Part shown: one piece after another, positions 1-36,473 of the stretch
Position numbering within the stretch: the first letter of the stretch is position 1
Layout of the letters: every line of letters begins with the position of its first letter
Origin: Diplocarpon mali
Taxonomy: Eukaryota; Ascomycota; Leotiomycetes; Helotiales; Drepanopezizaceae
Reading direction: 5' to 3'
Assembly: GCA_024741835.1 (NCBI GenBank)
Contig: JAENRP010000388.1
Coordinates: forward strand, 1 to 36,891
Length of the DNA stretch: 36,891 bases
Position numbers and translations under genes: made by a program
The notes under the pieces: model-generated
The model's input: the letters and a program-made list of their open reading frames with translations, nothing else
Told to the model about the DNA's origin: nothing
The model's database searches: none

Positions 1-3000
1 TAGTTTATAAATAATAATTATAAAGTAATCTTTAAAGCTAAAATCAAAGATAGACTTTATATTATCTTAAAGGTAATATTATAGAAATTGACTCTTAAGC
101 TAGACTTATAAGTGGGTTCCTTTAAGGAAAGTGCACTCTTTATCTTAATACAATTAAATAAGGATAAGGAGAATAGATGGACTCTTAAGCTAGGATCGTA
201 AGTAAAATTCGCAAAAATGACTCTTAAGCTAGGATTGCAAGTAGATTCTATAGATTCGCTAATAATAACTCTTAAGCTAGGATCGCAAGTGAAATTCGTA
301 GAAATGACTCTTAGGCTAGGACCGCAAGTAAAATTCGCGAATTCGTTAGAGACGACTCTTAAGCTAGGACCGCAAGTGGATCTTGCTATTTCTAGGAAAT
401 CGACTCTTAAGCTAAGACCGCAAGTAGATCTTGCGGTTTTATTAAAAACGACTCTTAAGCTAGGCTTATAATTAGAAAATGGCAAAACCTTAAACTGCTA
501 TTACTAGTCCTTTTTAGCTATTGATAATAAAGTATCGATTAATAATAGGCTATTAAAGCTATTAGAAGCCGAAAGCCTATTAAGGTATTAGCTAATGTAT
601 AAAAGATTCGTATATCTAAGACTAAAGAAATTAAAGGGCTTATATAAGGTCTTAATCTTAAAATAGAAGATCTAAGTATTAAAGGATCGCTTAATATGCC
701 GAATTTGCAAGCTGATAAAACTTTAAAATCGAATGCAAATTAAGCTTAATCTATAGAAAGATTCGATACTAGCACTAATATCTATTAATACTGCTAAACT
801 ATTTATAACCTTAATTAAAGGAAATAATTAGTTTTCTTAAATAGTAGATAATTCCACTTAATAGATATAGACTATTTACGCTAAGACTAAATCTAAGCTT
901 ATAAAAAAGCTAGAAACTTAAAAAGTGATAGAGGAACGCTAGACTTAATTAAAGCTAATAGCTATTAGGTTTAATAATATATTAAAGATTAAGGCAAAGC
1001 TTAATAAATAGGTAAAATAAGGAGTTTATTATAAATTAATTATAATATATAAAGGTTCTTACTAAAATAGTATTATTAAGCAAAGCATTTAGCAAGTAAA
1101 GACTAACTATTGCGCTCTACTATAAGATGCTAACCTACTATTAGAATTCTAAGACCTTGCGATTAAGGCAAACGCATACTTATAAAATAGAATAGGTAGT
1201 AGACTAATAGTTAATAGCACTTAAATATTACTATATAAGGCATATTTTAAATAGAAACTAAGCCTAGACTATATTTGCGTCTTTAAAAGCGTCTGCTACT
1301 CCTATATTAGCTTAAAGTCCTAGCCTGCGAGTATAAAGAGTAAGAAGCTAATAGATTAAGGTAAAGAGTATATATTTGTTAAGTATATTAAATAGATAAT
1401 AAAATAATAAATAGTATATGCGCTAGATCTAGGGTAAGTAATTATATCCTTAGTAATTGAGTTTGACGAATCTTAAAATAAGAGGAAGCTATCCTTAAAG
1501 CTTTATATAATTAAAGATTCGCAAGGTATACTACTTAATAGTAATACTATTAAGCCGAACTAATAACCCCTCTCTCTTAGCTTAAGTATATTAAGTATAC
1601 CTACTGATCGATAACCTGCTAATTGCCTAAAGGCCGAATAGACTATTCCTATTATCCGCGAATTGCTTAAAGTATAAAATAACTTTAATATTATTATCCC
1701 TTTAATTAAAGCACCTATAGTAAAGGATATTCTTAAAATAGGTATAAGTAATAATAAGCCTCTACTATTAGAAAGCAGTTCCTTAGATAATAAGCCTATA
1801 GAACCTATAGCTGAACCTACGCCTTTGAAAAGGAATAGAGACCTAGAATCAAAAGACGCCTTAGATAAACGCGAATCTAAGCGTATCTAAGCTATAATAG
1901 CGCATAGGATCTATAAGCTTGAACTTTAATAGAGCTTTGATAAAGATAATACGTTCCTAGCTACTAAGAGGATAATGAAAATCTCTCTTTTAAAGACGTA
2001 TAATAAAGCTATTAATAACCTAGAGAATAAAGCAGTATAGAATAAGGCAATCTAAGAGGAGATAAGCTCTTTTATTGCGAATAGTATATAGATAGAGGAA
2101 CTGACGCTAAAGGATATGAACCTAGTTTTAATAAAGTGGGTCTTTATAATTAAGACATATATAGATAGGACCTTAGAATATTATAAGGTAAGGCTTATAG
2201 CTAAAGGCTTCTCCTAATAGTATAAAGAAGATTACTTTAATATATTTATACTAATAGTTTATATAAATACCCTTTGCATATTTATAGCAATAGTAGCTGC
2301 TAAGGACCTTAAATGCAAATAGTATAATATTAAAAATGCATTTATTAAAGCGATTATAAAGGAACGGATTTTTCTCTCTTAATCTAATAGTATTCTTATA
2401 TACGCTAGCCACTCTCTTTATATACTTTATAGTATTTATAGGCTTAAATAATCAGCTTATAATTAGAATCTCTTATATAGCTCTGCTCTAATAGAAATGG
2501 GATTCGTTTAAAGCCTAGCTAACCCTTGTCTTTTTACCTATATTAAGCGTAGAATTAAGTTGCTCTTATATATTAATAATATTACTATAGCTACGAAAAC
2601 AACTACTTAATTAGATTGGTTCTTTATAATAATTCGGAAACGTTTTAATACTAAAGATCTAAGGGGAATTTATAAGATCTTCGGCATCTATATTATAAGG
2701 AACCGCTTTACTTAAGAACTCTAATTAGATTAAGAGTAGTATATTAAGAAGATCCTAGACCAAATAGGACTCTTTACTTATACTTTCAACTTTAAGCTAA
2801 AGTGTACTCTAATTAAAGGAAAGTATAATAAGTTAAAGCCTACTAATAAAAATAAGTAGAGAGGAGATTTAAAGAAGTACTAATAGGATATTAGAGCAAT
2901 TATATATACTATAGTATATATAAGACTAGATATCGCCTTTATTATTAGGCAACTTAGTCAGAACTTAAAGGATCTGACGATTCGATATAAGAATATAGTT

Positions 3001-3579
3001 AAGCAACTTAGAAGGTACTTTTAATTGATAATTATATAAAAGGTAAGATATAGACTAATGAAATATATAAGCGTAAAGCTTAAGGTATATATCGATTCTA
3101 ACTAGGCAAATATAAAAGGTTGGAAAAGTATATCTGGAAGCGTAATAGTACTATATAGCAGACCTATATTATAAGGAAGTAAGAAGTAGAAATCAATAGC
3201 TACTGCAAGCACTAAGGCCAAATATATATTAATATTATCAAATTGTAAGTAAGGATTATAAATCGCTTAAGTTCTAAAAGATATAGGTTTCGCTAAGTAT
3301 ATTAAATAAGATAGGAACTGTATTAATCTTTAAGCAGATAATATAAGAGCGATTGCATTTGTAAAGAACCTATACTTATATAAGCGATCGAAATATATTA
3401 ATATTACCTACTACTTTATCTATAACCTTATTGTGAAGAATAAGTTATCGATTACTTATATCTTAACCGATTGAATAGTAGCAGATGGATTTATAAAGCT
3501 ATTAAAGATAATTGCAAAGTTTAAAGCGTTTAAAGATATACTAAGGTTATAAAAGATAATAAGGGCTTAGCAGGCTTAA
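1..3579 (+). pseudogene. RIP-degraded copia gag-pol polyprotein, copy 1, partial
   Basis: One reading frame (phase of position 1) can be followed to TAA at 3577-3579 through many TAA/TAG codons that sit where Gln or Trp is expected. Order: palindrome-unit array (90-473); GAG-pre-integrase and integrase (about 550-1500), with an MPxS-like linker; reverse transcriptase from about 2100, with the families' KxRLIAKGF and KNAFIKA motifs and a YxDD box degraded to YINNI near 2570; RNase H near 3090-3240 with ST-A-Y core (ASTKAKY); and the C-terminal copia motif I-x-Y-x-x-I-x-x-L near 3400. No frameshift was found. It cannot encode a functional protein. The first third is outside the window. Confidence 0.9.
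90..473 (+). repeat. Array of eight in-frame 23-bp palindromic units in pol (copy 1)
   Basis: Units start (at ACTC) at 91, 181, 220, 268, 307, 355, 403 and 451. Start-to-start distances are 90, 39, 48, 39, 48, 48 and 48, all multiples of three. Each unit is a RIP-altered form of ACTCCTAGG...GCGAGT and reads T-L-K-L-G-P-Q-V or similar in the pol frame. The array lies between protease and GAG-pre-integrase. Spacers of 16 or 25 bp also resemble one another (for example AAATTCGCG, GATCTTGC). The last unit is the most eroded, ending ATT instead of AGT. Confidence 0.88.
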
Positions 3580-3584
3580 GGACG

Positions 3585-3734
3585 ACTCCTAGGCCCGCCT
3601 TACGAGTTAGGTTATATAGTCTTATAAAGGAAAGTTTTTAAATCGACTCTTAGGCCTAGATCGCGAGTTAAGTTATATAGTCTTATAAAGGAATATCTTT
3701 TAGGAAATTTGACTCCTAATCCCGCCTTACGAGT
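3585..3734 (+). repeat. Three palindromic units in the Copia-A 3' untranslated region (copy 1)
   Basis: Units at 3585-3607, 3646-3668 and 3712-3734 follow directly after the pol stop. They are closer to the inferred palindrome than most units in the coding array: the first reads ACTCCTAGGCCCGCCTTACG followed by AGT. Sequence between the units, including TTATATAGTCTTATAAAGGAA, is itself repeated, so unit plus flank was duplicated. The same three units occur at the matching place in copies 2 and 4. Confidence 0.85.
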
Positions 3735-3872
3735 AGGATTAGTGATTTTAATAGAGGTTACTATTAATTAATTGTTTTTAATTTAAAGAGATACTTAAGA
3801 GTTGGATTAGCGTAAAAGGATAGTTATTATTTTCCTAACTGTAGGTCAATTGGAGTAAGGTCTAAGTAGGGG

Positions 3873-4067
3873 TATTAAGATAGGTGATATAGCTATCACT
3901 TTGATATATTATTATATGACCCTACTGCTTAGTTAATAGGATGTTAATACATATATAGCTAAAGGGAAGAAAGGGGTAACCTTCTTTCCTTAACTCTTAC
4001 TAATATATCGACTATCGACCTTTAGAAGTTTCTATTACCTACTGCGCCGACTTATTTAAGCTTAATA
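3873..4067 (+). repeat. 3' LTR of Copia-A copy 1 (195 bp)
   Basis: It runs from TATTAAGATAGG to AAGCTTAATA. Comparison of seven LTRs in the window gives termini TATTGAG...CTCAATA. These are best read as RIP-altered TGTTGAG...CTCAACA, the canonical TG...CA ends with a 7-bp inverted repeat. A purine-rich tract lies just upstream. All seven Copia-A LTRs here are exactly 195 bp. Confidence 0.93.
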
Positions 4068-5101
4068 AAATCGTTCTATACTCTAGAGAAGTATCTTATA
4101 GCGCCGGAGTCTACTTTCTAAGAAGGCTGATCTACTATTAAGCTTAGAGCTATTTTAATAGCTTCTGTTATTATAGCGATTTTATATATTAAGGAATAAG
4201 AGTAGATAGATAAGGTTATATTATCTTTAGCTATTTAAGCTTTAGCTTTATCTCCTCTCTTCTTAAACTAGCACTTTGATTTCCAGTGGCCTAATTTACT
4301 ATAGTAATGACAATTTCCCTTCCTTTCTATTCCTCCTTTTTATATTCCTCTATATTATATTCCTCCTTTTCCTCTATCGCCTCTTCTTCTATCTCCTCTT
4401 CCTCTGAATCTGCCTCCTCTGCCTCTGCTACGGCTCCCTCGAGAGAGATTGGCTTCTATATTTAGGGCCGCTAATTGCGTAGCAATCGGGGTTACTTTAA
4501 GCTGTTCCCTATATAGTTGTTTATACTATTCGATCGCTATAATCGTCTATTAGAAGGTCTTGTCTTTGTCTTTAAGCTAAAGTTGTACTAAGGACTATAT
4601 TCTAATAAGAGGGAGGCTAATAATCAGCTGGTTTGTTATCTGACTATCGTTCAGGGGGTTATCGTAGCCTTTCAGGCGAGCTTAGATGCCTTTTAGCCTT
4701 CGAATGTAATCTTTAAGAGATTCGGAGTACGGTATATATTTGGCCTTATAGAATTCCTTAATCAGGTTCGTATAAGCTTCTATATTATTTATAAGAGTGC
4801 CTTTGCTATCTCTAATAGCATTCTAAAGAGCGTAAGCGTCTTTAGCAATAATCTCATTCTTATACTTCTTACTAATTAGGGAGGAAAGGCTTCTAGCTTT
4901 GATAGCTATAGCCTCTTAATTTTTCTTCTCCTATTTACTGTCTCCTTTAGAGGAGGAGGGGCGTAGAGGAACAGGGCCGAGAGCGTAGGAAATACAGCTA
5001 TTAGCTGCTAGAGTCTTAATAACTGTCGGTCTCCACTCCTAATAGTTGGCCCATTCGAGTATGACCTCGACTTCGGTATTATTAGCGGCTTTACTTATCA
5101 T
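4068..5101 (-). pseudogene. Copia-B gag and protease N-terminus, RIP-degraded
   Basis: The likely start ATG is at 5101-5099, and one frame continues to the insertion at 4068. The mid part resembles the copia gag core (UBN2-like), with KEFYKAKYIPYSESLKDYI near 4690-4760. It is followed by an arginine/glycine-rich RGG-type tract (about 4330-4450 on the plus strand) and a CCHC zinc knuckle at 4312-4271 read as C-H-Y-Y-S-K-L-G-H-W-K-S-K-C, where the second Cys has become Tyr. Near 4090-4130 is the protease signature V-D-S-G-A with the catalytic Asp kept. In-frame stops stand at Gln or Trp positions. RNA binding and packaging is the family role; this copy is dead. Confidence 0.88.
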
Positions 5102-5407: not shown

Positions 5408-5974
5408 AGAATGAATAACTCCGGTATACGTCAGAATCTCATTCAAGAGATCAGGCCCATAAGTGTCAAGGAGTAGATCCCAATCAAGGAGTTTCCAACC
5501 TAGCTTCTCCTTGTATCTAATACACCTGTAGCTTTCCCGACCTATGCTATATACTTGAGAACTAACATAGCATGCCAGAGAGGAACGGGTTCCATCGAGT
5601 CAAGAGGATCGACTCCAGAGATGAGTGCAGAGCAGTGGCTTGGCTGACCAAAGTAGTCTGCCCATCACAGATCACCATGGTTCCGACAATTACGATTCGT
5701 CTGCGGGGAGGAGTACGGACAAAGACACCGGGGATATACCTGACCGCCGCCCTCCTTATCTTCGGCGATGTCTGACTCAATGCTCACGTCGCTGATCCGT
5801 CGAGTATGAGCGCTCGATGAAGCTCCCTCCACTGCGCATCGTGTCGGGCCGAGAATATCCACTCCAGCCTCGACAGGTCTCAAGGTACGACAGGCAGACT
5901 CACGGCTCGACCATTTCGTTGCGCATTCGCCGTTTGGTCGCCGCCTGCGCACTCCCGATTCCGTGGGTTGCACC

Positions 5975-6072
5975 GGTTAGGATATACAAGGATTGTGCTT
6001 ATGTAATCGCACCTTGTATATATACTCCTACAGCTCCATAGATCTCGGAATCCACACCTTTAGATTCTAGTA
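5975..6072 (+). repeat. Solo LTR related to Copia-B
   Basis: It runs from about GTTAGGATATACAAGG to TAGATTCTAGTA, about 98 bp. It aligns with the Copia-B LTR at both ends, in inverted orientation to 5284-5407, while the middle differs and is shorter. It keeps CpA and TpG, so RIP has not touched it. Flanks are not retroelement sequence, and no clear 5-bp duplication is seen (GCACC before, CCCGA after). A solo LTR formed by LTR-LTR recombination is the simplest reading. Confidence 0.62.
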
Positions 6073-14035: not shown

Positions 14036-17000
14036 GCAATTCTATTCGAAATAGCAATAGTATCCGATTCCGATCGAAACACTAAGTCTAAAGACCTCTA
14101 ACTCTCTTAGAAGAACTGGCAACGATAGTTCGACGATTTAAAGCTTTACTTTAAGAGTAAAGGCATTAAAATAGCGATTTAAAAGATACTTATTAAATAC
14201 GCAAGAATAGCCCTTTATACTCCCTCTACTAATTCGTCTACTTCTACTTTAATAGCTAATATAATTGCTAAGGATTTGCCAGATATACTAAATAAGCTTA
14301 GCCTAAGAGCTTTAGTAGATAATAACTAAGAATCCTAAAGGTAGATTTTAAATATAGAAAAGGAAAAGGAGTATAAGCTGGCCTTAGCTAAATGCAAGCT
14401 TAAGATTAATAGAGGTTTAAGCGATAAAGACTAAGATTTTATTCGAGTTTATAATAATATAAAGATAAGATAGGATATATTAAAGGTAAAATACTCTTAA
14501 ACAACTGCCCTTAATACCTAGCATTTGCTATAGCAGATCACTTCATTTTAGTATAAAAAAGATAAAGATAGTAAGGATATAGATATAAATATAGACTCTA
14601 CTTAGTCTATACTATATAAAGTAAGGAGGAGAGTAAGAGCCGTAGATCCTAGGATAGCTATGACTTTTAAGGAAACTCAGCTTTTTAGTTTCCTACTTAA
14701 TAGCCTCCCTCTTAAGTTTGCTATTATAAAACAATCTCTTCTTATTTAACCTAACCTTAAGATCTATAAGAAGATCGACCTCCTTTGAACTATTAAGCAA
14801 GACCTCGAAGGACGCTTTAAGTCGGCAAATGCCGCATTATAGGGCAACGATAAGCCTAAGAAGAGGAAAGAGCGCAGGACGAGCCCTCGAGCTTATCGGA
14901 GATGCTACTTCTATAATAGTGCTTATAATATTACTAATTATAAAGTTAAAAGGCAACTGATCGATATAGTTGCTAGCTTTAATATTAAGAAGCAATCGAA
15001 GCAAAAGTTAAGAAGCAAACTACCCTTATCCTATTAAAGGCTGTAACTATTAAGGAAAGGCAAAGGAAAAGGCTATTTAACCAGAACTTTAGCAGATACC
15101 TTTAATAATAATAGTAGGTTATTTAAACTTAAATCCACTTTTAATAATTTAAATAATAATTATAATAAAGATACCTACGTTTTAAAAGCCGATCTTTATA
15201 AGATCCTTAAATCCGACTGGTATAGTAATACTAGTTATATAGTATATATGATTGATAAACCCTACCTATTTAAAGGCCCGCTTATTAAAATAAAAAGGCA
15301 CTTTATTAAGGTTGGTAGTAAAAGGTTATATATAGATTCGATAGGTATAGTAGAGATAAATGTCGCTAGCGTTTCTTTCCTTTTGTAAAATATTCTCCTT
15401 ATACTTAGCTTAGGTATTAATCTTTTATCTAACTGCAAGATTTATATAAAGTTAAATTATATAAGAGTTTTCAATAATCAATTTATATAGTTTATAAATA
15501 ATAATTATAAAGTGATCTTTAAGGCTAAAATTAAAGATAGACTTTATATTATCTTAAAGGTAATATTATAGAAATTGACTCCTAGGCCGGACCTATAAGT
15601 AGGTTCCTTTAAGGAAAGTGCACTCTTTGCCTTAATATAATTAAGTAAGGATAGGGAGAATAAATAGACTCTTAAGCTAGGATTATAAGTAGAATTCGCA
15701 GAAATGACTCTTAGGCTAGGACCGCGAGTGAAATTCGCGAATTTGTCAAAGACGACTCCCGAGCTGGGATTGCAAGTGGATCTCGCTATTTCCAGGAAAT
15801 CGACTCCTAAGCTAAGACCGCGAGTAGATCTTGCGGTTTTATTAAAAACGACTCTTAAGCTAGGCTTATAATTAGAAAATGGCAAAACCTCAAACTGCTA
15901 TTACTAGTCCTTTCTAGCCGCTGATAATAAAGTATTAACTGATAATAGGCTATTAAAGCTATTAGAAGCCGAAAGCCTATTAAGGTATTAGCTAATATAT
16001 AGAAGATTCGCGTATCTAAGACTAGAGAAATTAAAGGGCTTGCATAAGGTCTCGACCCTAAAATAGAAGATCTAAGTACTAAAGGATCGCCTAGTATACC
16101 GAATTTGCAAGCTAATAAAACTTCGAAATCGGACGCAAACTAAGCTTAATCTATAAAAAGACTCGATACTAGCGCTAATATCTATTAATACTACTAGACT
16201 ATTTACAACCTCGATCAAAGGAAATAATTGGTTTTCTTAAATAGTAGATAACTCCACTTAATAGATATAGACTATTTGCGCTAAGACTAAATCTAAGCTT
16301 ATAAAAAAGCTAGAAACTTAGAAAGTAATAGAGGAACGCTAGACCTAGTTGAAGCTAATAGCTATTAGGTTTAATAACGCATTAGAGATTAGGGTAAAGC
16401 TTAACAAATAGGTAAAATAAGGAGTTTATTATAAACTAACTATAATATATAAAGGTTCCTATTAGAATAGTATCACTAAGCGAAGCATCTAATAAGTAGA
16501 GACTAACTATTACACTCTATTGCAAGATGCTGACCTACTACTGGAATTCTAGGACCTTATAGTTAAGGCAGACGTATACTTGCGAAATAGAATAGGTAAT
16601 AGACTAATAGTTAATAGCACCCGAATATTATTATATAAGGTATATTTTAAATAGAAACTAAGCCTGGACTATATCTGCGTCTTTAGAAGCGTCTGCTACT
16701 CCTATATTAGCCTAAAGTCCTAGCCTATAGGTATAAAGAGTGCGAAGCTAATAGACTAAGGTAGAGAGTATATATTTATTAAGTATATTAAATAGATAAT
16801 AAAACAATAGATAGTATATGCGCTAGATCTAAGGCGAGTAATTATATCCTTAGTAATTGAGTTCGATGAATCTCGAAATAAGGAAGAGCTATCCTTAAAG
16901 CTCTATATAACTAGAGATTCGCAAGGTATACCACTTGATAGTAATACTATTAAGCCGAACTAATAACCCCTCTCTTTTAGCTTAGGTATATTAAGCGCAC

Positions 17001-18984: not shown

Positions 18985-19134
18985 ACTCCTAGGCCTGCCC
19001 TGCGAGTTAGGTTATATAGTCTTATAAAGGAAAGTTTTTAAATCGACTCCTAGGCTTAGACTGCGAGTCAAATTATATAATCTTATAAAGGAATATCTTT
19101 TAAGAAATTTGACTCCTAGTCCTACTCTATAAGT
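18985..19134 (+). repeat. Three palindromic units in 3' untranslated region (copy 2)
   Basis: Units at 18985-19007, 19046-19068 and 19112-19134. The first reads ACTCCTAGGCCTGCCCTGCG plus AGT, close to the inferred founder. Phase differs between the first and the other two, as expected outside coding sequence. Confidence 0.85.
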
Positions 19135-19467: not shown

Positions 19468-19472
19468 TTCTT

Positions 19473-22927: not shown

Positions 22928-24490
22928 GCAATTCTATTCGAAACGGCAATAGCTTCCGATTCCGATCGAAATACTAGACCTAAAGACTTCTAACTCTTTT
23001 GAAAGAACTGGCAATAATAGTTCGACGATTTAAAGCTTTACTTTAAGAGCAAAGGCATTGAAATAGCGATTTAAAAGACACTTATTAAATATGCAAGAAT
23101 AGCCCCTTATACTCCCTCTACCGATTCGTCTACTTCTACTTTAATAGCTAATACAACTGCTAAGGATTTGCTAAATATATTAAATAAGCTTAACTTAAGA
23201 GCTTTAGTAAATAATAACCGAGAACCTTAAAGGCAGATTTTGAATATAGAAAAGGAGAAGGAGTATAGGCTAGCCTTAGCTAAATGCAAACTTAAGATTA
23301 ATAGAGGTTTAAGCAACGAAGATTGAGATTTTATTTAAATTTATAATAATGCGAAAATAAGATAAGATACTTTAAAGGTAAAATACTCTTATATAACTGC
23401 CCTTAATACCTAATATCTATTATAGCAGATCACTTTATTTTAGTATAGAAAAGATAAAGATAGTAAGGATATAGATATAAATATAGACTCTATTTAATCT
23501 ATATTATATAAAGCAAAGAGGAGAGTAAAAGCCGCAGATCCTAGGATAGCTATAACTTTTAAGGAAACTTAGCTTTTTAATTTCCTACTTAATAGCCTCC
23601 CTCTTAAGTTTACTATTATAAAACAATCTCTTCTCGTTTAACCTAACCTTAAGATCTATAAGAAGATCGACCTCCTTTGAACTATTAAGTAAGACCTTAA
23701 AGGATGCTTTAAATCAGCAAATACCGCGTTATAGGGCAACGATAAGCCCGAGAAGAGAAAGGAGCGCAGGACAAGCCCTTAAGCTTATTAAGGATACTAC
23801 TTCTATAATAGTACTTATAATATTACTAATTATAAAGTTAGAAGGCAACTAATCGATATAGTTGCTAGCTTTAATATTAAGAAGCAATCGAAGTAGAAGT
23901 TAAGAAGCAAACTGCCCTTATCTTACTAAAGGCTGCAACTACTAAGGAAAGGCAAAGGAAAAGGCTATTTAGCCAGAACTTTAGCAAATACCTTTAATAA
24001 AGACAATAGGTTATTTAAACTTAAATCCACTTCTAATAATTTAGACGATAATTATAATAAAGATGCCTATATCTTAAAAGCCGATCTTTATAAGATCCTT
24101 GAATCCGATTAGTATAATAATACTAGTTGTATAGTATATATAACTAATAAATCCTACCTATTTAAAGGCCCGCTTACTAAAATAAAAAGGCGCTTTATTA
24201 AGGTTAGTAGTAGAAGGTTATATGCAAACTTAATAGGTATAATAGAGATAAATATTACTAGCGTTTCTTTCCTTTTATAAAATGTTCTCTTTATACTTAG
24301 CTTAAGCATTAATCTTTTATTTAACTATAAGATTTATATAAAATTGAATTGTATAAGAGTTTTTAATAATCAATTTATATAATTTATAAATAATAATTAT
24401 AAAGTGATCTTTAAAGTTAAAATCAAAGATAGACTTTATATTATCTTAAAGGTAATATTATAGAAATTGACTCTTAGGCCAGACCTATAA
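22928..24490 (+). pseudogene. Copia-A gag and protease relic, copy 3
   Basis: Gag runs in the same phase as in copy 2 with F-D-D-L-K-L-Y-F-K-S-K-G-I near 23025 and the degraded knuckle near 23795. The protease region follows near 24100-24130. The phase reaches palindromic unit 1 (ACTC at 24470) unchanged. The frame stops at the Gypsy-E insertion. Confidence 0.85.
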
Positions 24491-24690
24491 TGTTACGGCC
24501 GCATTATATACACGGTTATATCACATGTTGGTCAGGTGCACGAAGTCAGGTGCCCGCTAAGGTAGCAAGGTGGCTAGATCACGTGCACGCTAGTAAAGCA
24601 CTTATACTTATTCTAAAGGAGCTTTACTAAAGACTCTCTTTTCTTCTTTATCTTTTCTTCTTAATTATATAGCGTACCTCTTAAGGCAAT
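24491..24690 (+). repeat. 5' LTR of Gypsy-E, start clear, end approximate
   Basis: The start TGTTACGGCCGC is abrupt. The first 130 bp keep CpA and TpG (CACATGTTGG, CACGTGCACG) and look much less RIP-altered than the rest of the element. No second LTR is in the window and no convincing primer site was found, so the end is only estimated. Confidence 0.55.
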
Positions 24691-25749: not shown

Positions 25750-27150
25750 ATGCCACTTAAGAGAAGTAAAAGGTTAACCGCACCTCTACTACTAGGCCTT
25801 ACTACTATTAGTTTTATAGGCTTTACTACTACTAGTTCCAGTTCTATAGGCCTTATTGCCAATCCTAGTCCTAGAGATATTCCCTCTCCTAAGCCTACTT
25901 AAGAAGAAACCTCCCCTAGTACCGATTTTACTCCTAGGCCTAGATTACAAGTAGATTCTTAAAATACTCCCTTTCTATTAATTAAAGTTAAGGAAGAACC
26001 AACATCTACCCTTACTATATTAGCTCCTCTTTTCTCAACTGCCTAATAGGCTAAAATCGCAAACCTCATTAGTGCTACTATAGCCGCTGCTCTTTAAAAT
26101 AATACTACTGCCCCTTTTTCCTTAAGTGCTAGCCCTTAGAATACTCAGTCCCTTACCGCCGACTTACTACCTTCCTTAGACTACTACCTCTCGATTATTA
26201 GACCTTTAGTCCTAGCCGTCGACCCCTATTGAATTAAGTACCCTTAAACCCATTTTAGCAACTACTAAGGTAAAATTACCTATAACGCTTAAAAGATAGC
26301 TATAAAGGTATTTATTTAAAAGTACTTAAGCAACTTTACTTTAAGAGAGGACTAGATCACTGCCTACTTTAAGTGTATAATAGGTAAAGCTTAGAACTTA
26401 ATCCTATAATATATAGATTCTATCTTTATTAGTAAGTTTATATATACTACTAATGTCCTTAGGGTTTTAGATTAAAGGTTCTTTAACTATAACTATATTT
26501 AATCTGCTAAGCTTAAATATAATAGGCTAATTATAGGTTTATTATTATATAATAAGTTCTAATCTAAGTTTATTATCCTTATTATAGTTAGAAAGATCGA
26601 TCAGTCTTACTAGTTTGATAATATTTGTAAAAAGGTCTCCCCGGCTTTAAAGAACGACCTTTAAGTAGAAAAGTATAAAATGAATAATAATTATACTACT
26701 TTAAATAAGTTCTTAGCTATTGCAGACCGCAAGGCTTATAATATTAAGTAAGAAAAGGCCTATAACGCTTAACAAGTCGCTCCTACCATCGCATTCTCTC
26801 CTTTAAAGGACCGCGTCCCTGGCATATTAAAAAGGGAGTTATAAAGACCTACTGCTATAGCTACCTCCTTAGCTCTTTGCACTCATTCTCTTTTACTAGC
26901 GACTTATTAAGAAAGGTCTGCTAGCTTAAAGCTATCATCTAGTCTCTGCTATAATTGCAAAGCCCTTAGTTATTATATAATAGACTGCTTAAAGCTAAAG
27001 AAGTAAGGCGAGTTTATAATAGCTAAAGTTAAGATGGAAAACAACCTACTATTAGGAAACTGCTAAGCTATAGCAAAGACTCCTATTATAGTATAAGTTA
27101 TAATTTATAGAAAGACTTAGATTTTGATTCCTACCTATTAATAGGCGGCT
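25750..27150 (+). pseudogene. Gypsy-E gag relic
   Basis: From ATG 25750 one phase with few stops leads through a Ser/Thr/Pro-rich N-terminus holding one in-frame palindromic unit (25930-25952, T-P-R-P-R-L-Q-V) and a capsid-like region (about 26250-26650) to a zinc knuckle near 26947, C-Y-N-C-K-A-L-S-Y-Y-I-I-D-C, whose His has become Tyr. The 3' boundary is approximate. Pol continues in a different phase, consistent with frameshift expression or a separate frame. Confidence 0.82.
25930..25952 (+). repeat. In-frame palindromic unit in Gypsy-E gag
   Basis: ACTCCTAGGCCTAGATTACA plus AGT, 23 bp. It reads T-P-R-P-R-L-Q-V in the gag phase and is followed by D-S, as in several Copia-A units. Confidence 0.82.
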
Positions 27151-28720
27151 GCTAGTTCTTAGTTTCTATAAAATTAACTTGAAATAGATCATTTATTAAA
27201 ACAGTTACCTATATTAATAGTAGAGCTAATATTTTCGGTATTATCAAGACGTCTTTAATATACTAGCTTTCTTAAAGACTTAAGGTAAAGTTTATTAAAC
27301 TGCCTAAACCGATTACCTCTATTAGTTATAATAGCCTTAAGGGAGAAACCATTCGATTCGCCGTCTTACTTACCCTTATAATTGATAGGCGATAAATAAA
27401 CTTCCCTTTCCTAATTATAAGCTTAAGAGCAATTAACGTTTTGATTAATAAGAAGTTCTTAAAGTATTATAACCTTAAATAGTCTTATAGAAAGGGAAAA
27501 AACAGCATCTCTTAGCCTAAGGATATACCTATTATCCCTTACTTTAATCGATGCATACTAATCGATCTTTTATAACTAATAAAACCCTTAATAGCTTAAT
27601 AAGACGTTGATTGTTAAGTAGCTATAATAGATGCCGAGGACAAAGACCTTAGAATGGCCTAAGCCTAGCTCTTAGTACTAGCAAGCACTAACGCCCTAAA
27701 TTCCACTCCTAGTCCTAGCCTATAAGTAAAATCTGCGAACTCGAATTCTACTCCTAGTCCCAGCCTATAAGTAAAACCTACTAATTCGATTCCTACTCCT
27801 ATGGCCTCTTATAGACCTAAGGATAGCAGTTTCTTTAAAGACTTAAAAAGAGATCTGAATTATATAAAGAAGGCCTTGCTAAGAGTACTAGACCCCTTGC
27901 TCCCTCTCTTAATAAAAAGGAATGCTACTCTAAAGCCGGCTTATTAAATCAGCCTAATTTTAGCCTTAGCAATCGGCGCCCTTTACTACTGCTTTATAAC
28001 TAAGGTAAGATAAGTTATATAAACTTAAGAACCGGCGCCTAAAGAGTTTATATTTATAAGCTTTATTTATAATTTAGATTAAGAAATCAATTGCTAAGAA
28101 TCGGTTAGGCAAGCTGAAATTAGCTCCCTTAGCCTTAGTTCGGCGCTATAAGCTAAGTATAAGAGCAATAATAAGCTAATAGATTAGAAGCTCCTGCCTT
28201 AGTACGCTAAGTTTAAGAACGTCTTCAATCGCTAGACCTTTAATTAACTGCTAGAACTTAGGCTAAGGGTAGATTATAAAATTGAGCTAATAAGCGAGAA
28301 CAACTTAACAATCGAACCCCTCTACCGCCTTATTAATAAATAGCTCTTAAAGGTCAAGAGCTATATTCTCGAGAACCTATATAAAGGATTTATTAAAGCT
28401 TTAAGTTCCCCTTAGGTAGCCTCAATCCTCTTTATTAGAAAAGCTAATAGCTCCTTATATCTATATATTAACTATTAGAAACTGAATGCCTTAATAAAGA
28501 AAGACCCTTACCTGATTCCCTTTATTAATAAGATAATAGTACGCATATTAAAAGCTTATGTTTTTATAAAAATCGATATATAATAAGCCTTTTACTATAT
28601 TTGTATATTAGCTAACGCTAAGGACCTAACTACCTTTCGCACGTGCTATAGGACTTATAAGTATAAGGTTTTACCATTCGGACTGACAAATAGGCCTACT
28701 ACCTTTTAAAGGTTTATTAA
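27151..28720 (+). pseudogene. Gypsy-E pol relic, protease to mid RT
   Basis: The protease active site D-S-G-A appears as N-S-R-A at 27216-27227, followed by N-I-F-G. Two clear and one eroded palindromic units lie between protease and RT. RT shows Y-I-N-Y-x-K-L-N (about 28464-28487; Y-R-x-L-N in the family), F-I-K-I-D (about 28562), and L-P-F-G-L-T-N-R-P-T-T-F near 28670-28706. The frame breaks after F-I-N at the ATTAA target of copy 4. Confidence 0.87.
27705..27817 (+). repeat. Two clear and one eroded palindromic units in Gypsy-E pol
   Basis: Units at 27705-27727 and 27750-27772 read S-T-P-S-P-S-L-x-V; a third, eroded unit may lie at 27795-27817. Spacing is 45 bp (15 codons). All are in the pol phase. 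The spacer K-S-A-N-S-N resembles Copia-A spacers such as K-F-A-N-S-L. Confidence 0.78.
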
Positions 28721-28915: not shown

Positions 28916-29053
28916 CCCTTACTTAGACCTTACTCCGATTGACCTGCAGTTAGGAAAATAATAACTATCCTTTTGCGCTAATCCAACTCTTAGGTATATC
29001 TTTAAATTAAAAACAATCAATTAATAGCAACCTCTATTGAAATCACTAATCCT

Positions 29054-29205
29054 ACTTGCGAAGTAGGACTAGGAGTCAAATTTCCAAAAGCGTTCCTTTA
29101 TAAGACTATATGATTTGACTTGCGGTCTAGGCCTAAGAGTCGATTTAAAAAAAAACTTTACTTTATAAGACTATATAACCTAACTCGCAGGGCGGGCCTA
29201 GGAGT
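29054..29205 (-). repeat. Three palindromic units in 3' untranslated region (copy 4)
   Basis: Units at 29183-29205, 29118-29140 and 29054-29076, in element order. The first, ACTCCTAGGCCCGCCCTGCG plus AGT in sense orientation, is among the best-preserved in the window and shows the stem ACTC..AGG / CCT..GAGT clearly. Confidence 0.85.
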
Positions 29206-29210
29206 TGTCC

Positions 29211-32200
29211 TTAAGCCTGCTAAGCCCCTACTATCTTCTACAACCTTAGTATATCTTTAAATGCTTTAAACTTTACAATTATCTTTAATAGCTTTATAAA
29301 TCTATCTGCTACTATTCGATCGGTTAAGATATAAGTGATTAATAACTTATTCTTTGCAATAAGGTTATAGATAAAGTAATAGGTAATATCGATATATTTT
29401 AATCGCTTATACAAGTATGGATTCTTTATAAGTGCAATCGCCCTTATATTATTTACTTAAAGATTAATACAGTTCCTATCTTATTTAATATACTTAGTAA
29501 AACCTATATCTTTTAAAACTTAGGCGATCTATAATCCTTGCTTATAATTTGATAATATCGATATATATTTAGCCTTAGTACTTATAGTAGCTATTGATTT
29601 CTACTTCCTACTTCCTTACGATATAGGTCTACTATATAGCATTATTATGCTTTTAGATATACTTTTCCGACCTTTTATATTTGCCTAATCGGAATCGGTA
29701 TATACTTTAAGCTTTGCGCTTATATATTTTGTTAATCTATATCTTACCTTTTGTATAATTATTAATCGAAGGTACCTTTTAAGTCGCTTGACTGCATTCT
29801 TATATTAAATCGTCGGATCCTTTAGGTTCTGATTAAGTTGCCTAGTGATAAAGGCGATATCTAGTCTTATATATACTATAGCATATATAATCGCTCTAAT
29901 ATCCTATTAGTACTTCTTTAGATCTCTTCTCTACTTATTTTTATTAGCAGGCTCTAACTTATTATACTTTCCTTTAATTAGAGTACGCTTTAGCTTAAAG
30001 TTGGAAGTATAAGTAGAGAGTCCTATTCGGTCTAGGATCTTCTTAATATACTGCTCTTAATTTAATTAGAGTTCTTAAGTAGAGCGGTTCCTTATAACGC
30101 AAATGCTAAGGATCTTATAAATTCCCCTTAGATCCTTAGTATTAAAACGTTTCCGAATTATCATAAAGAACCAATCTAATTAAGTGGTTATTTTCGCAGC
30201 TATAGTAATATTGTTAATATATAGTAGCAACTTGATTCTACGCTTAATATAGGTAAATAGATAAGGGTTAGCTAAGCTTTAAACGAATCCTATTTCTACT
30301 AAAGTAGAACTATATAAGAGGTTCTAATTATAGGCTGATTGTTTAAGCCTATAGATACTATAAAGTATATAAAGGGAGTAGCTAGCGCATATAGTAATAC
30401 TATTAGATTAGGAGAGAAAAATCCGTTCCTTTATAATTGCTTTGGTAAATACATTTTTAATATTATACTATTTGCATTTAAGGTCCTTAGCGGCTACTAT
30501 TACTATAAATATACAAAGGGTATCTATGCGAACTGTTAGCGCAAATGTATTGAAGTAGTCTTCTTTATACTATTAGGAGAAGCCCTTAGCTATAAGCCTT
30601 GCCTTATAATGTTTTAAAGTCCTATCTGTATATATCTTAATTATAAAGACCTACTTTATTAATACTAGGTTCATATCCTTTAATATCGGTTCCACTATTT
30701 ATATACTATTTGTAATAAGAGAGCTTATCTCCTCTTAGATTGCCTCATTCTATGCTGCTCTATTCTCTAGGTTGTTAATAGCTTTATTATACGTCTTTAG
30801 AAGAGAGATTTTCATTATCCCTCTAGCGGCTAGGAACGCATTATCTTTGTCGAAGCTCTATTAGAGTTCGAGCTTATAGATCCTATGCGCTATTATAGCC
30901 TAGATACGCTTAGACTTGCGTTCGTCTAAGGTATCTTTTGGTTTTAAGTCTTTATTCCTTTTTAAAGGCGTAAGTTCAGCTATAGGTTCTATAGGCTTAT
31001 TATCTAAGGAACCGCTTTCTAATAGTAAAGGCTTATTATTACTTATACCTATTTTGAGAATATCCTTTACTATAGGTATTTTAATTAAAGGGATAATAAT
31101 ATTAAAGTTATTCTATACTTTAGGCAGTTTGCGAATAATAGGAATGGTCTATTCGGCCTTTAGGCGACTAATAGGTTGTCGATTAGCAGGTGCGCTTAAT
31201 ATACCTAAGCTTAGAGAGAAGGGTTGTTAGTTCGGCTTAATAGTATCACTATTGAATAGTATACCTTGCGAATCTCTAGGTATATAGAGCTTTAAGGATA
31301 GCTCTCCCTTATTTTAAGATTTATCAAACTTAACTACTAAGGATATGATTACTTACCTTAGGTTTAGCGCATATACTATCTATTGCTTTATTATCTATTT
31401 AATATACTTAATAAATATATACTCTTTACCTTAGTCTATTAGCTTCTTACTCTTTATACTTATAGGCTAGGACTTTAGGCTAATATAGGAGTAGCAGACG
31501 CTTTTAAAGACGCAGATATAGTCTAAGCTTAGTTTCTATTTAAAATATGCCTTATATAGCGATATTTGGGTACTATTGACTATTAGTCTACTACCTATTC
31601 TATTTCGCAGGTATACGTCTGCCTTAACTGCAAGGTCTTAGAATTCTAATAGTAGGTTAGCATCTTATAATAGAGTGCGATAATTAGTCTCTGCTTACTA
31701 AATGCTTCGCTTAGCAATGCCATTCTAGTAAGAACCTTTGTATATTATAATTGGTTTATAGCAAACTCCTTATTTTGCCTATTCGTTAAGCTTTACCTTA
31801 ATCTTTAATATATTATTAGACTTAATAGCTATTAGCTTTAATTAGGTCTAGCGTTCCTCTATCACTTTCTAAGTTTCTAGCTTTTCTATAAGCTTAGATT
31901 TAGTCTTAGCGCAAATAGTCTATATCTACTAAATAGAGTTATCTACTATTTAAAAAAACTAATTATTTCCTTTAATTAAGGTTATAAATAGTCTAGTAGT
32001 ATTAATAGATATTAGTGCTAGTATCGAATCTTTCTATAGACTAAGCTTAATTCGCATCCAATTTTAAAGTTTTATTAGCTTGCAAATTCGGCATACTAGG
32101 CGATCCTTTAGTACTTAAATCTTCTATTTTAGGGTCGAGACCTTATATAAGCCCTTTAATTTCTCTAGCCTTAGATATACGAATCTTTTATATATTAGCT

Positions 32201-34241
32201 AATACCTTAATAGGCTTTCGGCTTCTAATAGCTTTAATAGCCTATTATTAGTCGATACTTTATTATTAGCAGCTAGAAAGGACTAGTAATAGCAGTTCGA
32301 GGTTTTGCCGTTTTCTAATTGCGAGCCTGGCTTAGGAGTCGTTTTTAATAAAACCGCAAGATCTACTTATAGTCTTGGCTTAAGAGTTGTCTTTAACGAA
32401 TTCGCGAATTTCACTTGCGGTCTTAGCCTAAGAGTCGTTATTAGCAAATTTGCAAAATCCACTTACGGTCTTAGCCTAAGAGTCATTTCTACTAAATTCA
32501 CTTATGATCCTAGCTTAAGAGTTATCTTTAAGGACACTTTATACTCTATTTATAGTCTTGACTTAAGAGTTATTTTCGCGAATTTTACTTGCGATCTTAG
32601 CTTAAGAGTCTATCTATTCTCCTTATCCTCGCTTAATTGTATTAGGGTAAAGAGTGCACTTTCCTTAAAGGAATCTACTTATAAGTTTGGCCTAGGAGTT
32701 AATTTCTATAATATTACCTTTAAGATAATATAAAGTCCATCTTTGATTTTAGCTTTAAAAATCACTTTATAATTATTATTTATAAACTATATAAATTGAT
32801 TATTGAAAACTCCTATATAATTTAACTTTATATAGATCTTATAACTAGATAAAAGATTAATACCTAAGCTAGGTATAAGGAGAATATTTTATAAAAGGAA
32901 AGAAATGCTAGCAATATTCATCTTTACTATACCTATTGAGTCTATATATAACCTTCTACCGCTAACCTTAATAGAGCGCCTTTTTATTTTAGTAAATAGG
33001 CCTTTAAATAGGTAGGGTTTATTAGTCATATATATTATATAATTAGTATTACTATACCAGTCGGATTTAAGGATCTTATAAAGATCGGCTTTTAAGATGT
33101 AAGCATCTTTATTATAATTATCATTTAAATTATCAGAAGTGGATTTAGGTTTAAATGACTTACTATTATTATTAAAGGTATCTGCTGAAGTTTTAGCTAA
33201 ATAGCCTTTTCCTTTGCCTTTCTTTAATAGTTGCGGCCTTCGGTAGGATAAGGGCAGTTTGCTTCTTAACTTCTGCTTTAATTGCTTCTTAATATTAAAG
33301 CTAGCGACTATATCGATCAGTTGCCTTCTAACTTTATAATTAGTAATATTATAAGCACTATTATAGAAGTAGTATCCCTAATGAGCTTAAGGGCTTGTCC
33401 TGCGCTCCTTCCTCTTCTCGGGCTTGTCGTTACCCTATAATATAGCATTTGCCAATTTAAAGCGTCCTTTAAGGTCTTATTTAATAGTTCGAAAGAGGTC
33501 GATCTTCTTATAGATCTTAAGGTTAGGTTAAATGAGAAGAGATTATTTCGCAATAGCGAACTTAAAAGGGAGGCTATTAAGTAAGAAATCAAAAAGCTGA
33601 GTTTTCCTAAAAGTTATAGCTATCCTAAGATCTATAGCTCTTACTCTCCTCCTCGCTTTATATAGTATAGACTAAGTAGAGTCTATATTTATATTTATTT
33701 CTTTACTATCTTTATCTTTTCTATATTAAAATAAAGTGATCCGCTATAGTAGATACTAAGTATTAAGGGCAGTTATTTAAAAGTATTTTACTTTTAAAGT
33801 ATCTTATCTTATCTTTACATTATTATAAACTTAAATTAAATCTCTATCTTTATCGCTTAAACCTCTATTGATCTTAAGCTTACATTTAGCTAAGGCCAGC
33901 CTATACTCCTTCTCCTTTTCTATATTTAAAATCTACCTTTAAGAATCTCGGTTATTATCTACTAAGGCTCTTAGGCTAAGCTTATTTAGTATATCTAGTA
34001 AATCTTTAGCAATTATATTAGCTATTAAAGTAGAAGTGGACAAATCGGTAGAAGGAGTATAAGGGGCTATTCTCGCGTATTTAATAAGTATCTTTTAAAT
34101 CGCTATTTCAATGCCTTTGCTCTTAAAGTAAAGCTCTAAATCATTGAACCATTATTGCCAGTTCTTTTAAGAGAGTTGGAGGTCTCTAGGCCTAGTGTTT
34201 CGATCGGAATCGGAAGCTATTGCCGTTTCGAATAGAATTGC
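29211..34241 (-). pseudogene. Copia-A gag-pol polyprotein relic, copy 4 (full span)
   Basis: It reads in one phase over 5,031 bp, exactly 87 bp longer than copy 2, to TTA (29211-29213 on the plus strand, a TAA stop). The same motifs recur at matching offsets: gag near 34150, the eroded zinc knuckle near 33375, protease near 33060, GAG-pre-integrase near 32180, RT Y-I-N-N-I near 30210 and RNase H near 29570. Its reading is blocked by the same class of Gln/Trp-derived stops. Several open frames on the opposite strand are shadows. Confidence 0.9.
32317..32699 (-). repeat. Array of eight in-frame palindromic units (copy 4)
   Basis: In element order the units begin at 32699, 32609, 32570, 32522, 32483, 32435, 32387 and 32339 (each 23 bp to the left). 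Spacings 90, 39, 48, 39, 48, 48, 48 are identical to copy 1. All share the gag-pol phase. Confidence 0.88.
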
Positions 34242-34377
34242 ATTTAAAATCAAATAAATTAAATAGTTAAGGGCACTCTTCCTATTGAAAAGTTGAAATG
34301 ATTAAATAGCAGGTATTATAAAAGTATTAAATAAGGAGGAAGTCCTTTTATTAAAAAGGGTTTTTTAGGCTATAACG

Positions 34378-34512
34378 TAAGGAATCACACCTTTTACGAA
34401 ATATAGTAAAGCAAGGAATCATACCTCTTATAATACTAAAGGGGTTGTAGAGCAAGGAATCATACCTCTTGCAATATAGGTTAGCTGAATAGAGAATCAC
34501 ACCTCCTATTCG
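34378..34512 (-). repeat. Four direct repeats in the Copia-A leader (copy 4)
   Basis: On the plus strand the motif appears as GGAATCACACCTTTT, GGAATCATACCTCTT (twice) and GAATCACACCTCCTA, the reverse complement of the leader repeats of copies 2 and 3. Confidence 0.78.
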
Positions 34513-34615
34513 CCGATTGCTCGCCTCTTATTATAAGTCTTATTCAACTTCCTACTAATAGTTGCAGCGCAAGTGCTTTTTAAAGGAAGTCAATAATCTA
34601 TTATTAGTCTATTTA

Positions 34616-34627
34616 GGGCTTATAACC
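34616..34627 (-). other. Primer binding site, half-tRNA-iMet type (Copia-A copy 4)
   Basis: GGTTATAAGCCC in sense orientation is the best-preserved of the three Copia-A sites, one TG-to-TA change from GGTTATGAGCCC. It abuts the 5' LTR. Confidence 0.72.
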
Positions 34628-34822
34628 TATTAAGCTTAAGTGAGTTAGCGCAGTAGGTATAGGAAACTTTTAAAGGTCGATAGTCGATATATTAGTAAGA
34701 GTTAGGGAAGGAAGGTTACCCCTTTCTTACCTTTAGCTATATACGTATCAATATCCTACTGACTAAGCAATAGGATCATATAACAATACATCGGAGTGAT
34801 AGCTATATCACCTATCTCAATA
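34628..34822 (-). repeat. 5' LTR of Copia-A copy 4
   Basis: 195 bp; on the plus strand TATTAAGCTTAAGTGAG to CCTATCTCAATA, followed by the ATTAA duplication. Confidence 0.93.
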
Positions 34823-36473
34823 ATTAATAATATTCTCTTTAAGCACCTTAACGATTTCTACTTTGCTTACTTAAATAATATTCTAATCTACTTAAAAAAC
34901 TCCCTTAACTATGAGATTTATATTAAGAAGATCTTAGGAATTCTTTAACGCTATAGCCTTTAAGTAGATATTAAGAAAAGCGAGTTTAAGGTTATTAAGA
35001 TTAGGTTCCTAGGATTTATTATTAAAGTTTATAAAATTAAGGTAGACCTTAATAAGGTCTTAGTTATTTAGGAGTAGAAATACGCTAAGAATATACGCAG
35101 TATATAAAGCTTCCTAAGGTTTTATAACTTCTATCGAAGGTTCATTTAAAGCTATAGTTGTATTTACCGACCCTTGATAGCTCTTATAGGAAACGTTCCT
35201 TTTGATTTTAACGACACTTATAAGGAAGCTTGGGAAGCTCTGCGCTTAAGGCTTTAAACGACCTCGATTTTATACTACTATTACCCTTAGAAGTAGATAA
35301 GGCTTAAGACCGACGCCTTTGATAGTATAGTCGCTAGTATACTCTCCTAACTTTAGGAAGACGAGAACTACTACCCAATTAGGTACTTCTTAAAGACAAT
35401 AAATAACGCCGAGCTGAATTACCCTATTTATAATAAGGAGCTCCTAGCGATTTTTAGATCGTTCTACTAGTATAAGGTAGAGCTACTTAAGGCTTAGAAA
35501 ATAGTATATATATATATAGATTATAAGGCCTTTAAGTACTTTATAATAACTAAGGACTTAATAGCCTAGCAGGCTCGCTAAGCGAAGTTCTTTGCTAATT
35601 TCAACTTCTTTATTATATACTAAATAGGCATAATGAATACGCTAGCTAATACACTCTTATATTAAGACTAGGAGCTAACCCCTCTTAAGGCTAAGAAACG
35701 AGCTTTACGCCATTAGCAGCTCTTACTTAACGATAAGCTTTCTATAGAAGTACTTGCTACTAGAGGCGATTCTACTCCTAGGCCCGGCCTATAAGTAACT
35801 TTAGCGCAGGTCGATTCCACTCCTAGGCCTGGCCTATAAGTAACAACTATGCCAATCGCGCTAATAGAGGCACCTGCTGACCTAATGTCTAAGGTCGAGT
35901 ATAATATGGCGAGCTACTATATTATCGATAAGGTCATTTAAGCTAATAAGACCTCCCTTGAGCTATAGAAGTTCTAAGACAAGGCGTAGAGCTATAGCCT
36001 TAACTATGAACTTAGCTAAGGGAAACTCTTCTTCTAAAGTAGACTTGTTATACTATCCTAACCTCCTGAACTGCGAACAGCCTTAATTTATTATATATAT
36101 AAGTAACCTTGCGTCGCATATGCTAGAATCGGGAAAACAAGGCTTTTAATAGGAAGAAAATACTATTAGAAAAGTCTTAGTAGTAATATTAGCACTTATA
36201 TTTAGAACTATTATTATTCGAGAATGAAAGCTTATTATAATAAGACCCTAGGTTTCCTGCAACCCTTGCTAATTCCTAAATGAGCTTACTAATACTTGAT
36301 AATGGATTTTATAAAGCTTCCGCTTAATGAACTCGGTTATAATTTTGCCCTTGTAATTATTGATAGGTTGTTAAAGAAGGCAGTTTCGGTTCTATACTAT
36401 AATTCGATTGACGCAAAAGGCTTTATAGAATTGTTTTTAGTTTACTAAATATGCTATTTTAGTATGCCTAATA
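34823..36473 (+). pseudogene. Gypsy-E pol relic, RT box to integrase
   Basis: The frame resumes after the duplicated ATTAA as N-I-L-F-K-H-L-N-D and reaches the YxDD box as A-Y-L-N-N-I at 34865-34882. RNase H begins at K-T-D-A (Asp kept, 35312-35314) and includes E-L-N-Y-P-I-x-x-K-E-L-L-A-I near 35410-35450. Two palindromic units lie between RNase H and integrase. Integrase has an eroded zinc-binding region near 36190-36230 and M-D-F-I-K-L-P with the first catalytic Asp at 36305-36307. It stops near M-P-N, before the second catalytic Asp. Confidence 0.86.
35774..35841 (+). repeat. Two in-frame palindromic units in Gypsy-E pol
   Basis: Units at 35774-35796 (ACTCCTAGGCCCGGCCTATA plus AGT) and 35819-35841 each read D-S-T-P-R-P-G-L-x-V, 45 bp apart, in the pol phase downstream of the copy 4 insertion. 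They are the best match to the inferred founder sequence in a coding region. Confidence 0.87.

What the first reader, a model, noticed from the sequence alone, without database searches (positions are those of the whole stretch)
90..35841. A 23-bp in-frame palindromic repeat shared by unrelated copia and gypsy elements
Seen: about 38 copies of a unit near ACTCCTAGGCC-N-GGCCTGCGAGT, with 23 in Copia-A gag-pol (one truncated), nine in the Copia-A 3' untranslated region and five or six in Gypsy-E gag and pol. Copia and gypsy elements have no recent common ancestry, so sharing needs transfer, mobility or convergence. Every coding unit is in the same codon phase, reading roughly T-P-R-P-G-L-Q/R-V. 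Known parallel: Rickettsia palindromic elements inserted in-frame in genes. I know of no fungal nuclear equivalent. Inference: a small, protein-tolerated, mobile or gene-converting palindrome.
Basis: partly seen in the sequence, partly recalled or inferred. Interest (0 to 1): 0.88.

Follow-up and report, generated by a model that had tools for sequence, protein, structure and literature searches.

The report
Palindrome shared across fungal retroelement families
A 23-base, nearly palindromic DNA word recurs hundreds of times in a likely Diplocarpon fungus, at unrelated places inside five different repeated elements, at least three of them likely retrotransposons, and often within coding DNA; it was likely copied from element to element rather than inherited from one ancestor.

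Summary
Genome-wide a pattern search gives 525+550 strand-wise matches at up to two mismatches, none for the reversed control. The unit sits at about 17 sites with unrelated flanks in five repeated elements: Copia-A, Copia-B, Gypsy-E, G1 (likely gypsy) and an unidentified repeat X. In blastn between four of them, 91 of 104 short matches contain the unit. Copia-A has units in one linker where Copia-B has none, and the reverse at another. Mirror positions 9 and 15 occur in all four combinations across unrelated elements. I read this as a short palindrome copied between retroelements, likely by template switching in reverse transcription, then multiplied as tandem arrays. Against active mobility: no empty site was seen within any family, and 40 of 40 sampled places are repeats, none an evident host gene. 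The same-phase rule fails once (G1, frame 2), and the shared block reaches about six bases further left at some sites. The mechanism is inferred; selection for a shared signal is not excluded.

The parts
91..113 (+). Copia-A copy 1, site S1 (coding, frame 1; stretch read by motif as the pre-integrase linker)
181..473 (+). Copia-A copy 1, array S2: units at 181, 220, 268, 307, 355, 403, 451; periods 39 and 48
3585..3734 (+). Copia-A copy 1, 3' units at 3585, 3646, 3712; spacing 61 and 66, not multiples of 3
15578..15600 (+). Copia-A copy 2, site S1
15668..15873 (+). Copia-A copy 2, array S2: units at 15668, 15707, 15755, 15803, 15851 (two fewer than copies 1 and 3)
18985..19134 (+). Copia-A copy 2, 3' units at 18985, 19046, 19112
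24470..24492 (+). S1 unit cut off where Copia-A DNA stops and other DNA begins (TGTTACGGCC...)
25930..25952 (+). Gypsy-E coding unit, frame 1 (9/15 = G/A here, T/C in another copy, L132)
27705..27772 (+). Gypsy-E coding units at 27705 and 27750 (period 45), frame 1
29054..29205 (-). Copia-A copy 3, 3' units at 29183, 29118, 29054
32317..32609 (-). Copia-A copy 3, array S2: units at 32587, 32548, 32500, 32461, 32413, 32365, 32317
32677..32699 (-). Copia-A copy 3, site S1
35774..35841 (+). Gypsy-E pol units at 35774 and 35819 (period 45), frame 1; single in 21 fetched copies (L055, L065-L084), 2-4 in L092, L095, L098, L101, L111, L123, L127, L128

Best explanation
The unit is a 23-base near-palindrome (about 29 bases with a GATTYC left edge at some sites) that was likely copied between repeated elements, likely retroelements, of one fungal genome and then multiplied locally as tandem arrays. 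Shown: the same unit at about 17 unrelated sites in five elements, in both orientations, in open coding stretches and in 3' ends; variant states shared across unrelated elements; array size differing between copies. Inferred: the copying happens when reverse transcriptase pauses at the palindrome and switches template between co-packaged RNAs of different elements, or within one RNA. Inferred: copies persist where the encoded short Pro/Gly/Arg peptide is tolerated, which would explain the linker positions and the bias to one reading frame. Inferred: C-to-T wear (RIP-like) later blurred the GC-rich unit.
For: Reversed-pattern control is 0 in each of the 8 pattern searches of the genome. Between-element blastn at E<=0.01: 91 of 104 matches contain the unit (several copies per element, so matches are not independent). 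Copia-A has units in a linker where three Copia-B loci have none, and Copia-B has them before its protease where Copia-A has none. Mirror pair 9/15: G/C 34, G/A 47, T/C 12, T/A 7 of the 100 listed of 467 (counted by eye); the same kind of change at the neighbouring pair 10/14: 0 of 100 listed of 198. At G1 site S10, ten copies are 5 T/A and 5 G/C, none mixed. One Gypsy-E pol site holds 1, 2, 3 or 4 units. 10 of 11 coding sites use frame 1 (binomial 1.3e-4 against 1/3). 40 of 40 sampled places fall in repeats.
Against: No empty site within any family: 21 of 21 at the Gypsy-E pol site (20 of the 40 best matches to a query that held the unit, plus the query, so biased to filled copies) and every Copia-A copy fetched (selected with a query that held S1). 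No chimeric junction or constant target duplication was found. Copia-A also carries a partial unit further along (1310, 16710, 31458), so its lack of units in that part is not claimed. The 9/15 states could arise by recurrent mutation, since mirror positions share their context; position 14 does vary in another way (G to C in Copia-A S3a 12 of 12 and S3c 9 of 9). Four of the five G/C copies at S10 (L058, L062-L064) were fetched by a pattern that demanded G/C. RNA folding of 8 unit stretches beats shuffles clearly once (z -3.8; the other seven -1.2 to 0.1). G1 and X have no Pfam match that makes them retroelements.
Confidence: 0.43

Rival explanations
1. A selected shared signal: the palindrome is a binding, RNA dimerisation or packaging site used by several elements through a common host or element factor, kept by selection once acquired.
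For: The fetched copies of each family keep it; both orientations occur, as a palindromic site would allow; it lies near the element end in Copia-A and Copia-B as well as in coding DNA.
Against: Position varies widely; at the Gypsy-E pol site the unit changes about as fast as its flanks (transitions 2.3 against 1.7 per column, transversions 0.13 against 0.07); near-exact 23 bases is more than convergence on a site would need.
Confidence: 0.23
2. A free miniature DNA element, like the Rickettsia palindromic elements, that inserts anywhere and survives mainly in repeats.
For: Precise unit, many sites, in-frame tolerated, palindromic, mixed orientation; weak GATTYC-like edges on the left of 8 of 15 sites and, mirrored, on the right of 6 of 15, against 3.9% of random positions (motif chosen after seeing the data).
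Against: 40 of 40 sampled places are in repeats; no empty sites within families; no constant target duplication seen; 23 is not a multiple of 3, so a bare 23-base insertion would break the frame.
Confidence: 0.19
3. Inheritance from one ancestral retroelement followed by tandem duplication and rearrangement.
For: Copia-A and Copia-B are related (tblastn of pieces, best E about 1e-5 at the RNaseH end); arrays grow by tandem duplication; Copia-A has a partial unit (1310) in the general region where Copia-B has S6, which could be a shared old site.
Against: Other sites differ between the two copias and between them and the other elements; outside the unit the elements share almost no matching DNA.
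Confidence: 0.11
4. Selection for the peptide (T-P-R-P-G-L-R-V and relatives) in each protein.
For: Frame bias, 10 of 11 coding sites.
Against: The same bases occur in 3' ends (F2, S3); the same codons recur in different elements; both orientations occur; one site uses another frame.
Confidence: 0.03

Closest known systems
Rickettsia palindromic elements (recalled; search listings only)
   Same: Short palindrome-bearing repeats found inside open reading frames, read in a tolerated frame (recalled).
   Different: Here nuclear, likely fungal, 23 bases instead of roughly 100-150 (size recalled), and found in repeated elements rather than host genes.
Mitochondrial GC clusters, e.g. GC42 of yeast (PMC4478555, passages read)
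   Same: Short GC-rich palindromes in AT-rich DNA, with merging and shuffling of units; RNA-mediated copying is suggested there too.
   Different: Those are mitochondrial, 42 bases for GC42, flanked by AG or ACT direct repeats, and show absence at homologous positions; none of that was shown here.
[quoted passage not shown]
   Same: Coding tandem repeats with dyad symmetry, partly tied to mobile elements.
   Different: PARCELs encode a 25-residue amphipathic motif in ORFs without assigned function, many membrane-targeted; here an 8-residue Pro/Gly/Arg peptide in broken retroelement genes.
Conserved hairpin site of fungal GalEa copia elements (PMC5445492, passages read)
   Same: A palindrome conserved across fungal copia families.
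   Different: That one is 9 bases at the edge of the 5' LTR; the unit here is 23 bases, internal, at varying positions, and also in a gypsy element.

Membership tests
Rickettsia palindromic element-like inserts | Short palindromic unit inside coding sequence without breaking the frame | tested here: met
   (e.g. 177 open codons around the unit in L036)
Rickettsia palindromic element-like inserts | Same insert in unrelated genes with empty relatives | tested here: inconclusive
   Unrelated sites met; empty sites only between Copia-A and Copia-B, aligned by motif, none within a family
Rickettsia palindromic element-like inserts | Insertion into host genes | tested here: not met
   0 of 40 sampled places in an evident host gene; most other places were not examined
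Mobile GC clusters (mitochondrial type) | Constant short direct repeats flanking each copy | tested here: not met
   Flanks of 15 sites compared by eye; no constant direct repeat
Mobile GC clusters (mitochondrial type) | Presence/absence between strains | not testable with these tools
   One genome held, no relatives
MITE | Terminal inverted repeats plus target site duplication | tested here: not met
   Inverted repeat yes, target duplication not seen
Minisatellite array | Tandem copies with spacer, size varying between copies | tested here: met
   but arrays do not explain sharing across elements
GalEa conserved hairpin site | 9-base palindrome at the 5' LTR edge | tested here: not met
   Unit is internal and 23 bases

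The most novel reading that the evidence does not exclude
A selfish palindrome that lives on retroelements: a short hairpin sequence that reverse transcriptase itself copies from one co-packaged retroelement RNA into another, so that copia and gypsy families of one genome trade a common tag, with exchange running through the palindrome's centre.
Probability: 0.32. Interest if true: 0.86.

Novelty: new variant of a known kind. Interest (0 to 1): 0.63.

Why it matters
Small in-frame palindromes are known from Rickettsia, and mobile palindromes from mitochondria. A nuclear fungal one, shared by copia and gypsy elements and found so far only in repeats, would point to exchange of very short sequence between retroelement classes. 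It would make hundreds of natural records of such exchange available for testing reverse-transcriptase template switching and palindrome correction in a genome.

Tried and rejected
Single recombination between Copia-A and Gypsy-E: rejected, five elements and about 17 sites. Peptide convergence: rejected, the same bases stand outside coding DNA. Chance: rejected, controls 0. Rfam gave no match in the window. RNA folding against shuffles was unremarkable for 7 of 8 stretches. Protein homologues: a Copia-B unit array and a Gypsy-E triple unit found nothing; a G1 gag-like piece found one Diplocarpon coronariae protein, 85% over 85 residues, which covers the stretch between two unit sites and holds no unit peptide. 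Pfam: no retroelement match for the Copia-A pieces tried, nor for G1 or X; an RVT_1 match in L011 lies upstream of the G1 gag-like frame on its strand, so it cannot be assigned to G1. Bacterial and archaeal genomes: no exact match. Recurrent C-to-G at position 5 of the Gypsy-E pol unit as palindrome correction: 3 of 21, but two of the three share a further change, and L127 and L128 show such units in arrays, so not taken as independent events. A loose flank rule set mixed sites and was replaced; the S3c cluster was trimmed to 9 of 21 by its right flank and one L009 row was dropped from F3b. In one search, 109 of 357 units fell below the site threshold; most are Copia-A array units or weak matches with three changes, some are Copia-B arrays and new sites, read by eye. 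Five duplicate rows (362 to 357) were dropped.
Full report
What is there. The window is contig C388 of an unnamed 49.4 Mb genome in 676 contigs. It is AT-rich (34% GC) and full of broken repeats. Three Copia-A copies (1-4172 partial, 13457-19572, 28721-34823 reversed) and a fragment (22347-24490) were found by self-comparison. At one Gypsy-E site changes between 21 copies are mostly transitions (1.67 against 0.066 transversions per flank column), which fits RIP-like wear; RIP itself is inferred.

The host. A gag-like piece matches a Diplocarpon coronariae protein at 85% over 85 residues. A published D. coronariae genome has 51.5 Mb with 20.7% LTR/Copia (PMC11527701, passages read). The host is therefore likely D. 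coronariae or a close relative; no tool names it.

Genome-wide. ACTCCTAGGCCNGGCCTGCGAGT at up to two mismatches has 525 and 550 matches on the two strands, control 0 and 0; some places can count on both strands. The strict form ACTCNNNGGCCNGGCCNNNGAGT has 315 distinct places, control 0. Expected at two mismatches from base composition alone: under 0.01. An exact RIP-tolerant form was absent from the bacterial and archaeal genomes held.

The elements. Gypsy-E: RT_RNaseH_2 E=1.1e-8, above its cut-off, and weak RVT_1 (0.0036) on one side of the pol unit, weak Integrase_H2C2 (0.14) on the other; so that unit lies between RNaseH and integrase. Copia-B: RVT_2 E=0.00022 and 0.0012, below the cut-off, and a weak gag_pre-integrs match (0.035). 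Copia-A: no Pfam match in the pieces tried; long terminal repeats and tblastn similarity of pieces to Copia-B. G1: gag-like, no Pfam match; called gypsy by look only. X: AT-rich, repeated, no family at a curated cut-off. Domain names beyond these are read from motifs by recall.

Sites. Copia-A: S1 and array S2 in a linker, S3 at the 3' end. Copia-B: F3 (also S7) before the protease, S6 before a KKRGRP motif, F2 after the RNaseH end. G1: F7, F6, S10, S16. Gypsy-E: 25930, 27705/27750, and the pol site. X: four units in L137 at 360, 2004, 2190 and 3420. That is 17 sites, counting each array as one.

Sampling. Of 40 places fetched for context (31 listed, 9), all fall in these sites: F2 17, F3 8, Gypsy-E pol 6, X 3, G1 3, Copia-A 3' 2, Copia-B S6 1 (counted by eye). 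None is in an evident host gene. A search for other flanks gave 9 places: F3 3, F2 2, S10 4. Most of the genome's places were not looked at.

Boundaries. Blastn between samples of Copia-A (1 stretch), Copia-B (4), Gypsy-E (5) and G1 (3) gives 104 matches at E<=0.01; 91 contain the unit. Of the 13 others some are part units, one is a 173-base match of Copia-A to L049, and two are a separate shared stretch at window 36468-36555. Only the five best unit matches per pair were listed: some coincide with the 23 bases, several (e.g. L021 against L036, L101 against L091) start 4-6 bases further left and end at or one base after the right end. A GATTYC-headed form has 130+114 matches at one mismatch, control 0. 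So the shared block is likely about 29 bases at some sites. As 23 is not a multiple of 3, an in-frame insertion must have brought or duplicated further bases.

Phase and orientation. Frame 1 holds at A-S1, A-S2, B-S6, B-S7, G1-F6, G1-S10, E-25930, E-gag, E-pol and X-2004; frame 2 at G1-F7. 10 of 11 gives 1.3e-4 against 1/3. X-2190 and X-3420 look like frame 1 too but were not counted. The copies are worn, both strands are often open, and G1-S10 is the least sure. B-S7, G1-F6 and G1-S10 are reversed to the coding strand. The GC-rich form is open in all frames by inspection, so the bias likely reflects what the protein tolerates. At the Copia-A 3' end spacings are 61 and 66, not multiples of 3; in coding arrays 39, 45, 48 and 54.

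Empty sites. Between families: L012, L021 and L024 (Copia-B) have no unit between S7 and S6, a stretch that holds the LWHYRLGY-like motif, where Copia-A has S1 and S2; Copia-A has no unit between 13457 and 15578, where its protease motif lies, while Copia-B has S7 just before the protease. The alignment is by motif. Copia-A has a partial unit at 1310, 16710 and 31458, so nothing is claimed for the S6 region. Within families: none. The Gypsy-E pol site has one unit in 21 of 21 fetched copies (20 of the 40 best of 185 candidates, plus the query) and two to four in L092, L095, L098, L101, L111, L123, L127, L128 and the window.

Variant states. Position 15 is A in 59 of 59 Copia-A array units other than the last, 11 of 11 S3b, 13 of 13 G1-F6, 11 of 12 B-S6b and window 25930. 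It is C or T in 10 of 10 last array units, 10 of 12 S1, 12 of 12 S3a, 9 of 9 S3c, 33 of 33 F2, 27 of 27 F3a, 16 of 16 F3b, 12 of 12 F7, 44 of 44 Gypsy-E pol and 8 of 8 gag units; B-S6a is mixed (7 A, 6 C) and so is G1-S10 (5, 5). Position 9, its mirror, is T in S3c (9 of 9), Gypsy-E gag (6 of 8), G1-S10 (5 of 10) and B-S6a (2 of 13). All four 9/15 combinations are found: of 100 listed of 467, G/C 34, G/A 47, T/C 12, T/A 7; T/A alone has 37 places. The same kind of change (C to A, G to T) at the neighbouring pair 10/14 is absent from 100 listed of 198; position 14 does change G to C in Copia-A S3a and S3c. At G1-S10 ten copies are 5 T/A, 5 G/C, 0 mixed; outside the unit one column partly follows this split. 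At the 25930 site the window has G/A and L132 T/C. This fits exchange through the palindrome's centre between two unit types, or correction of one arm by the other. Recurrent mutation at mirror positions is the alternative.

Mechanism. Sampled places all in repeats, mixed orientation, linker and 3' positions and shared variant states fit copying between retroelement RNAs during reverse transcription. Gene conversion between DNA copies would fit much of it too. Selection for a shared signal is not excluded. On rechecking I lowered the best reading from 0.45 to 0.43, because G1 could not be tied to a reverse transcriptase and Copia-A has a partial unit near the S6 region.

Novelty. Searches of the held papers gave parallels but no report of this unit; Diplocarpon with palindrom and retrotransposon gave none. 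Subscription papers and preprints are mostly not held.

Noticed in passing
window 24470-24495: The Copia-A fragment stops inside an S1 unit and TGTTACGGCC follows, as if another LTR element had inserted in the unit; units make up a few percent of Copia-A, so chance is possible.
   Followed up: partly
window 36468-36555: A stretch of 71-88 bases is 96% and 88% alike to L058:1342-1412 and L036:702-789, at different places relative to the G1 units: another short dispersed repeat or the edge of a further element.
   Followed up: partly
window 5668-7761: A GC-richer island (57% GC in 7001-8000) among AT-rich repeats with overlapping open frames in several phases and a 38-base tandem repeat at 6886-7033; no Rfam match at gathering score.
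   Followed up: partly
L040:1000-1521: Next to the F2 unit lie repeated blocks near TTCTATTAAGGGGTGATTTTTTTT, and the Copia-B element ends near ...CCTCATTGCTACA.
   Followed up: partly
L126:125-147 and L062:1626-1648: A perfect or near-perfect palindrome directly before an A-rich run, close to the G1 S10 site (site S16).
   Followed up: no
L127:1-271: A Gypsy-E-like pol site with four units, mostly with G at position 5, and a left flank unlike the other copies.
   Followed up: no
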